Source: Spirosoma aureum
GTDB lineage: Bacteria; Bacteroidota; Bacteroidia; Cytophagales; Spirosomataceae
Assembly (NCBI RefSeq): GCF_011604685.1
Contig: NZ_CP050063.1
Location: forward strand, 5,850,501-5,914,500
DNA length: 64,000 nt
Direction of reading: 5' to 3'
Of the stretch, positions 2,868 to 2,949 are shown one piece after another (position 1 is the first letter of the stretch; every line of letters begins with the position of its first letter). A program made the translations under genes and the position numbers. The notes beneath the pieces are model-generated. The model did not search any database and was not told the DNA's origin. It saw only the letters and a list, made by a program, of their open reading frames with translations.

Positions 2868-2949
2868 AATGAATAATGTACAATGCACAATGAAGTAAAC
2901 GCTTCTGCATTGCACATTGTCCATTTTTCATTTTACATTCTACATTTTC
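2868..2949. repeat. Heptad-built inverted repeat between groES and groEL
   Basis: The left arm is four 7-base units AATGNNN (aatgaat, aatgtac, aatgcac, aatgaag, 2868-2895). The right arm is six units CATTNNN (cattgca, cattgtc, cattttt, cattтta-like, cattcta, cattttc, 2908-2949), the reverse-complement theme. The arms can pair imperfectly around 2868-2893 and 2907-2932. The element ends seven bases before the groEL start, so it lies in the groESL transcript leader between the two genes. Confidence 0.8.

What the first reader, a model, noticed from the sequence alone, without database searches (positions are those of the whole stretch)
2868..2949. Intergenic inverted repeats built from 7-base units
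Between groES and groEL, the left arm is four AATGNNN units and the right arm six CATTNNN units, all in perfect 7-base register. The same layout with other sequence themes recurs at 6008-6073 (aagaacg / attcttc), 13726-13816 (agcgaga / tcgctcc) and 24255-24325 (gggatat / atatccc), with one-armed runs at 141-175 and 17875-17909. Sequence differs, but period and mirror arms are kept. Heptameric repeats are known in cyanobacteria; I do not know a description for this lineage. Since arms keep pairing while sequence drifts, selection or copying by a 7-base mechanism is possible.
Basis: partly seen in the sequence, partly recalled or inferred. Interest (0 to 1): 0.75.

Follow-up and report, generated by a model that had tools for sequence, protein, structure and literature searches.

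The report
Intergenic hairpins of short repeats
Between genes of this bacterium sit stem-loops whose two arms are runs of 7- to 9-base units; related species keep a stem at the same place while swapping its sequence, which suggests that the arms are copied from each other during DNA replication and, at some sites, kept for their shape.

Summary
In 2.44 Mb from six genomes of the genus, intergenic hairpin arms show best periods of 7 (65 hairpins), 8 (35) and 9 (15), against at most 5 for each of the six other lags tested. Three results stand out. (1) Polarity: the 5' arm has more G than C in 111 of 115 periodic hairpins but in 131 of 282 others. (2) Turnover with the stem kept: the grpE-dnaJ spacer has a stem of 17-41 nt in all 30 species examined (34 of 36 genomes had grpE), while its period needs at least 6 changes on a 26-species tree. 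(3) In one close species pair the loop is inverted in 4 of 18 periodic hairpins, 3 of them clear, and both-sided stem changes exceed chance, although one-sided changes are commoner. These fit slippage plus DNA template switching between arms, with selection for a stem at some spacers. A strictly 7-base machine is not supported, since 8 and 9 also occur. Xanthomonas GGGAATC repeats and Nostoc trnL P6b hairpins are the nearest known kin. I call it a new variant of a known kind; function is untested.

The parts
2868..2895 (.). 5' arm of the groES-groEL hairpin, four AATG at 7-base spacing
2896..2904 (.). loop of that hairpin
2905..2946 (.). 3' arm (2905-2932 pairs with the 5' arm) and its unpaired continuation; six CATT at 7-base spacing from 2908
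2568..2864 (+). groES (Cpn10)
2956..4596 (+). groEL (Cpn60)
6008..6069 (.). hairpin between divergent genes; arms 6011-6033 / 6047-6069; AAGAACG and TCATTCT runs
5324..5986 (-). ABC transporter ATPase, left neighbour of that hairpin
6126..7343 (+). sucC-like (ATP-grasp_2 and Ligase_CoA), right neighbour
13723..13817 (.). hairpin between a transketolase-domain gene and an ECF-type sigma-factor gene; arms 13723-13755 / 13785-13817
   Evidence: replaced by a GTTTACG-type hairpin in G007 and G017
24265..24322 (.). grpE-dnaJ hairpin; arms 24265-24288 / 24299-24322
24335..24940 (-). grpE
23090..24250 (-). dnaJ
141..175 (.). weak one-armed ATTNNNN run
   Evidence: 5 of 500 shuffles as high
17875..17909 (.). 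weak one-armed run
   Evidence: 13 of 500 shuffles as high

Best explanation
The groES-groEL feature is one of a large class of intergenic stem-loops in this genus whose arms are runs of 7-, 8- or 9-base units. Proposed working: (a) replication slippage grows a C-poor tandem run; (b) the nascent strand folds back or jumps to the other arm and is copied for a few dozen bases (template switching), which makes or re-perfects the complementary arm and can invert the loop; (c) in some spacers, clearly grpE-dnaJ, cells without a strong intercistronic stem are selected against, so a stem persists while its sequence is replaced. Shown by the sequences: the periods, the hairpins, the fixed polarity, arm covariation, inverted loops and theme replacement at fixed gene junctions. 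Inferred: the replication events themselves, the selection, and any effect on mRNA. For the polarity I suggest, as inference only, that a G-rich C-poor strand can prime its own fold-back through G-T pairs whereas its complement cannot.
For: Periods 7/8/9 in hairpin arms: 65/35/15, others at most 5 each, of 397 hairpins. Hairpins per genome 64/51/90/76 against 0/1/0/0 in one shuffle of each spacer, four genomes. Loops inverted relative to the flanking genes in 4 of 18 periodic hairpins of G021-G001, 11 same, 3 unclear; three have inverse identity 0.89-0.95 against 0.44-0.67 forward. Both-sided changes that stay Watson-Crick: 6 in 18 mapped periodic hairpins with 2.16 both-sided changes of any kind expected. 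Within-pair mismatches show no G-U preference in heptad hairpins between co-directional genes: GU 49, AC 56, as expected of a DNA-level process. Papers: template switching homogenizes inverted-repeat arms and inverts spacers (PMC8604942, passages) and can create and maintain hairpins (PMC8794818, abstract and passages). Selection: stem in 30 of 30 grpE-dnaJ spacers with 6 or more period changes.
Against: One-sided changes outnumber compensated ones in periodic stems (31 against 6 with G021 as reference, 28 against 3 with G001), and non-periodic hairpins are better compensated (20 against 14), so arm copying in periodic stems is not very efficient or selection is weak. Six of six compensated changes were transversions, but two thirds are expected by chance and the looser count has 7 of 8. 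One non-periodic loop is also inverted (1 of 11), so flips are not special to periodic stems; one of the four periodic flips is weak (0.62 against 0.31). The groES-groEL spacer has no clear stem in 11 of 30 species. Indel lengths between close species show no clean 7-base ladder. A column test found no excess of fully conserved unit positions (353 against 348.5, sd 6.6), so a recognised core is not shown in general. No experiment was run.
Confidence: 0.58

Rival explanations
1. Selection alone: the stems are functional mRNA hairpins (3'-end protection, intercistronic attenuation or start-site control), and complementarity is kept by ordinary stepwise compensatory mutation.
For: grpE-dnaJ: stem in 30 of 30, filling most of the spacer between 0-28 nt after the stop and 4-20 nt before the dnaJ start. 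Heptad hairpins are denser between co-directional (0.375 per kb) and convergent (0.323) than divergent genes (0.097). In the abc-sucC set one-sided changes read GU 15, AC 50 on the sucC strand, which would be GU-rich if read on the abc strand (84 non-independent pairs).
Against: No GU excess in co-directional heptad stems (49 against 56). Loop inversion and wholesale replacement by unrelated hairpins (3 of 24 spacers) are not predicted. Selection on RNA does not explain the period or the polarity. The 6008 hairpin lies between divergent genes.
Confidence: 0.22
2. Mobile hairpin elements (REP/BIME- or MITE-like) inserted and replaced by a transposase.
For: Themes are amplified in some genomes only: AATGNAN x4 matches range from 0 to 390 per genome, 25 of 36 genomes with a match, reversed control 0 in all 36. 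Unrelated hairpins occupy the same junction in close relatives.
Against: No Y1 transposase (PF01797) in the window's genome, 0 of 1, while the control genomes ring in 5 of 14. Units and arms share no common sequence across themes; no target-site duplication was looked for.
Confidence: 0.12
3. A dedicated 7-base copying machine, for example a templated polymerase that adds heptamers.
For: Seven is the commonest period, in named Bacteroidota loci too (lag-7 arrays 42 against 4 in one shuffle).
Against: Periods 8 and 9 have the same build and polarity; units are degenerate and many unrelated themes coexist in one genome.
Confidence: 0.04
4. Ordinary intrinsic terminators or chance low-complexity DNA.
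For: Non-periodic hairpins are indeed concentrated between convergent genes (3.26 per kb), as terminators would be.
Against: The terminator scan of 1-20000 lists 33 sites and none at 2868-2949, 6008-6073 or 13726-13816; shuffles do not reach the observed periods or stems at those sites.
Confidence: 0.04

Closest known systems
GGGAATC / GGGGA(C/T)T heptamer repeats of Xanthomonas and Nostoc (PMC4692102; sections 10 and 16 and passages read)
   Different: There one G-quadruplex-prone theme; here many themes without GGG tracts, periods 8 and 9 as well, inverted loops, theme swaps at one junction, and a different phylum.
Nostoc trnL intron P6b stem-loop, Class I TDNGATT / Class II NNTGAGT (PMC4476775, PMC3488679; passages read)
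   Same: A hairpin whose two arms are degenerate heptanucleotide repeats; the class of repeat is replaced while the fold is kept; length changes by repeat units; C-free 5' units.
   Different: One locus inside a group I intron; here hundreds of intergenic sites and no intron (no Rfam match in the window).
TAACTGA direct repeats of Beggiatoaceae, cyanobacteria and five Bacteroidetes (PMC4679880; abstract and sections 3 and 10 read)
   Same: Intergenic heptamer arrays, including long ones in Bacteroidetes.
   Different: Single fixed heptamer, mostly one-armed and upstream of start codons; no hairpin class described there.
Template-switch mutations at inverted repeats (PMC8604942, PMC8794818; abstract and passages)
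   Same: Arm homogenization, multi-base compensated changes, loop inversion.
   Different: Described in yeast genes and rRNA stems, not tied to 7-9-base periodic arms or to a fixed G-rich 5' arm.

Membership tests
Heptamer simple-sequence repeats (Xanthomonas/Nostoc type) | tandem 7-base units, intergenic, above chance | tested here: met
   lag-7 intergenic 10/13/36/20 against 0.8/1.8/1.1/0.8
Heptamer simple-sequence repeats (Xanthomonas/Nostoc type) | convergent inverted pairs with G-rich 5' arm | tested here: met
   62 of 65 for period 7; 16 convergent and 0 divergent pairs within 150 bases among the G001 places listed (counted by eye)
Heptamer simple-sequence repeats (Xanthomonas/Nostoc type) | G-quadruplex-prone G tracts | tested here: not met
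   main themes AATGNAN, GTTTNNN, TATGANN, AGTGANN, GAAAGAGY hold no GGG tract
Nostoc trnL P6b stem-loop | lies in a tRNA-Leu group I intron | tested here: not met
   0 Rfam matches at gathering score in the window
Nostoc trnL P6b stem-loop | repeat class replaced while the fold is kept | tested here: met
   stem in 30 of 30, at least 13 theme and 6 period changes on 26 species (theme labels are rough)
REP/BIME elements with RAYT | Y1 transposase gene in the genome | tested here: not met
   0 matches to PF01797 in the window's genome
Intrinsic terminator | G+C-rich stem followed by a T run | tested here: not met
   none of the 33 listed sites lies at the three hairpins in 1-20000; the 24255 site was not scanned
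Template-switch hairpin | loop inversion between relatives | tested here: met
   4 of 18 periodic hairpins in G021-G001 (3 clear); 1 doubtful of 5 in G000-G004
Template-switch hairpin | event observed in one generation | not testable with these tools
   needs mutation-accumulation data

The most novel reading that the evidence does not exclude
Bacteroidota carry a continuing, DNA-level hairpin-writing process with a directional rule: tandem runs of 7-9 bases on the C-poor strand are folded back and copied, so that every new stem has a G-rich 5' arm; cells exploit it as a supply of sequence-free structural parts at operon junctions such as grpE-dnaJ, where the stem is under selection but its letters are not. 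If a specific polymerase or repair route drives it, this would be a mutational machine that writes regulatory hairpins.
Probability: 0.2. Interest if true: 0.85.

Novelty: new variant of a known kind. Interest (0 to 1): 0.62.

Why it matters
Covariation between stem arms is normally taken as proof of selection on RNA. Here is a genus-wide natural data set in which arms covary, loops flip and whole themes are replaced at fixed gene junctions, so that copying and selection can be told apart. The near-absolute polarity of the periodic arms (111 of 115) is an unexplained, easily tested regularity, and it also holds in the convergent pairs reported for Xanthomonas (PMC4692102).

Tried and rejected
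Indel ladder: indel lengths between orthologous spacers of G000-G004 and G021-G001 are spread, so no clean 7-base ladder was found; many of these alignments are forced. Fixed core in the unit: the general test is negative for period 7 (353 fully conserved columns against 348.5, sd 6.6) and below chance for period 8 (251 against 269.8, sd 4.0); one search shows low entropy at AATG (0-0.46 bits) and high entropy at the other three positions (1.16-1.87), but its arms were chosen by similarity to the core. Deamination as cause of the polarity: it would enrich T in the 5' arm, but A exceeds T in 36 of 65, 30 of 35 and 4 of 15 hairpins of period 7, 8 and 9, so this is not supported. Co-occurrence of any hairpin in more distant pairs is only weakly above chance: 7 against 4.8 of 27, 4 against 2.9 of 17, 8 against 4.5 of 30, 8 against 4.5 of 16. 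Polarity outside the genus is weaker: 8 of 11 periodic hairpins in 78 of 80 named Bacteroidota loci (two loci under 4000 bases were left out). The phylum pattern search (98 of 296 genomes) has no clean control, because the reversed pattern TTACNNN is itself found as arrays in many of these genomes. One search counts compensation only where the partner also has a hairpin, which favours compensation; one search drops that condition and is the one to trust. Dropped rows: spacers over 1500 bases or with N, over 500-600 bases in pair tests, and hairpins that could not be mapped (3 of 21 and 2 of 19 periodic). The three spacers compared across the genus were chosen because the window has arrays there, so their rates are not genome averages; 30 loci were fetched of 36, 34 and 35 matching genomes. 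Literature: ten searches showed no description of this hairpin class in Bacteroidota; subscription journals are mostly not held.

Full report
What is there. The window is G000:C1:5850501-5914500 of an 8.9-Mb single-contig genome. The best named GroEL relative in the one collection scan is Dyadobacter diqingensis at 85% identity, so it is a Cytophagales bacterium; Spirosoma or a close genus is my guess, not a result. Three hairpins have period 7 and a stem that no shuffle reaches; the fourth (24255-24325) has a strong stem but is better described as a 14-base repeat; the two one-armed runs are marginal. The spacers lie between groES and groEL, between a divergent ABC ATPase gene and a sucC-like gene, between a transketolase-domain gene and an ECF-type sigma-factor gene, and between grpE and dnaJ.

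It is genome-wide. I called genes in 464 kb of G000 and 400 kb each of G004, G007 and G017. Intergenic lag-7 segments exceed shuffles about 7- to 33-fold in each while coding DNA shows none. Hairpins with score 14 or more number 64, 51, 90 and 76, against 0, 1, 0 and 0 in one shuffle of each spacer. Adding G021 (380 kb) and G001 (400 kb) gives 397 hairpins in 1498 spacers; the best period of the arms, where z exceeds 3, is 7 in 65, 8 in 35 and 9 in 15, and at most 5 for each of lags 4, 5, 6, 10, 11 and 12. AATG recurs at distance 7 in intergenic DNA 223 times and at 14 161 times, against 12 to 47 at other distances up to 16, and without such a peak in coding DNA. In whole genomes of the genus, AATGNAN x4 occurs in 25 of 36, from 0 to 390 copies, with 0 in the reversed control throughout. 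In the phylum sample CATTNNN x4 occurs in 98 of 296 genomes, though its reversed control also rings because TTACNNN arrays are common. In 78 of 80 named Bacteroidota loci lag-7 arrays number 42 against 4 in one shuffle, and lag-8 arrays 20 against 4.

Polarity. In periodic hairpins the 5' arm holds more G than C in 62 of 65 (period 7), 34 of 35 (period 8) and 15 of 15 (period 9); in the remaining hairpins 131 of 282. Removing copies with the same innermost 12 bases leaves 56 of 59, 29 of 30 and 15 of 15, against 123 of 262. All 30 grpE-dnaJ stems agree. Because a hairpin reads the same from both strands, this is not an effect of gene direction. Among the places listed for G001 I counted by eye 16 convergent AATG/CATT pairs within 150 bases and no divergent one. 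Outside the genus the rule is weaker, 8 of 11. PMC4692102 reports the same convergent arrangement for Xanthomonas GGGAATC repeats.

Evolution at fixed junctions. The grpE-dnaJ spacer was read in 30 species: every one has a stem, 17 to 41 nt long, placed 0-28 nt after the grpE stop and 4-20 nt before the dnaJ start. Arms are period 8 in 21, period 7 in 8 and unassigned (best lag 11) in 1. On a sucC tree of the 26 species with both loci, five rough theme labels need 13 changes (52 of 200 shuffles as low) and the period needs 6; two of the octamer themes differ by one or two bases, so not every theme change is a replacement. At groES-groEL an ungapped stem of score 10 or more is present in 19 of 30 and at abc-sucC in 25 of 30. 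The junction at 13723-13824 carries an AGGAGTGAG-type stem in G000 and a GTTTACG-type stem in G007 and G017.

Close species pairs. G021 and G001 (93.2% in gene flanks) share 162 testable spacers. Of 24 with a periodic hairpin in either, 17 keep the arms, 3 have an unrelated hairpin in the partner and 4 have a hairpin above threshold in one only. Loops: 11 same, 4 inverted, 3 unclear; three inversions are clear (0.89-0.95 inverse identity against 0.44-0.67), one is weak. In G000-G004, 3 same, 1 doubtful inversion, 1 unclear. Non-periodic hairpins: 14 same, 1 inverted, 2 unclear over both pairs. Stem changes without conditioning on a partner hairpin: with G021 as reference, 6 both-sided changes that stay Watson-Crick (2.16 both-sided changes expected), 31 one-sided; with G001 as reference, 3 (0.84 expected) and 28. 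Non-periodic stems are more often compensated (20 and 14). All compensated periodic changes are transversions, which speaks against the usual route through G-U, but two thirds would be transversions by chance and the looser one search has 7 of 8.

Mechanism. Slippage explains the units, template switching explains arm identity and inverted loops, and both are established DNA events; PMC8604942 (passages) reports exactly arm homogenization and spacer inversion, and PMC8794818 (abstract and passages) argues that such events create and maintain hairpins. No G-U preference among mismatches of heptad stems between co-directional genes (49 GU, 56 AC) favours a DNA-level cause. Selection is the best reading of grpE-dnaJ, where a stem never is missing although its letters change. 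Heptad hairpins are rarer between divergent genes (0.097 per kb against 0.375 co-directional and 0.323 convergent). What the stem does is unknown to me; Bacteroidota are said to tune translation by mRNA structure (PMC6847099, seen only in the listing), and the stems end close to the next start codon, so start-site control and 3'-end protection are the first things to test.

Place among known things. Heptamer repeats are known from cyanobacteria, Xanthomonas, Beggiatoaceae and a few Bacteroidetes (PMC4692102, PMC4679880), inverted pairs of them from Xanthomonas, and heptamer hairpins with class replacement from one Nostoc intron (PMC4476775, PMC3488679). This is therefore a new variant of a known kind: many themes, periods 7, 8 and 9, a shared polarity, inverted loops, and stems that outlive their sequences at operon junctions.

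Noticed in passing
L222, L234, L113, L121, L124 (spacers): A G+C-rich mini-hairpin of the type CCGGGCCGCCGGTGCGG sits inside or beside the arms at several junctions; it looks like a dispersed REP-like insert.
   Followed up: no
L217-L246, G007, G017, G021 hairpins: Stems with unrelated arm themes share the same inner tip, GCTGACGC...GCGTCAGC, next to the loop.
   Followed up: partly
window 2455-2510: Upstream of groES a TTGGCAC-N5-TTGGCA element resembles a sigma-54 promoter (recalled consensus), and similar letters stand upstream of groES in relatives (L123, L124).
   Followed up: no
G000 spacers: AACCGTGGCACGG recurs in 7 spacers of 464 kb, a dispersed short palindrome of this genome.
   Followed up: no
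G001 and G021 hairpins: Period-8 and period-9 stems of the type ACCGCGAGGACGCAAAGA and ACAGGATTTACAGGATGA, quite different in letters from the heptamer themes; one of the inverted loops is in such a stem.
   Followed up: partly
G032:C1:1651887-1653100: sucC is read in two overlapping pieces; frameshift, assembly error or mixed genome (5% contamination).
   Followed up: no
window 16122-16197: Coding repeat with lags 6, 9, 12 and 18, an ATC-rich stretch.
   Followed up: no
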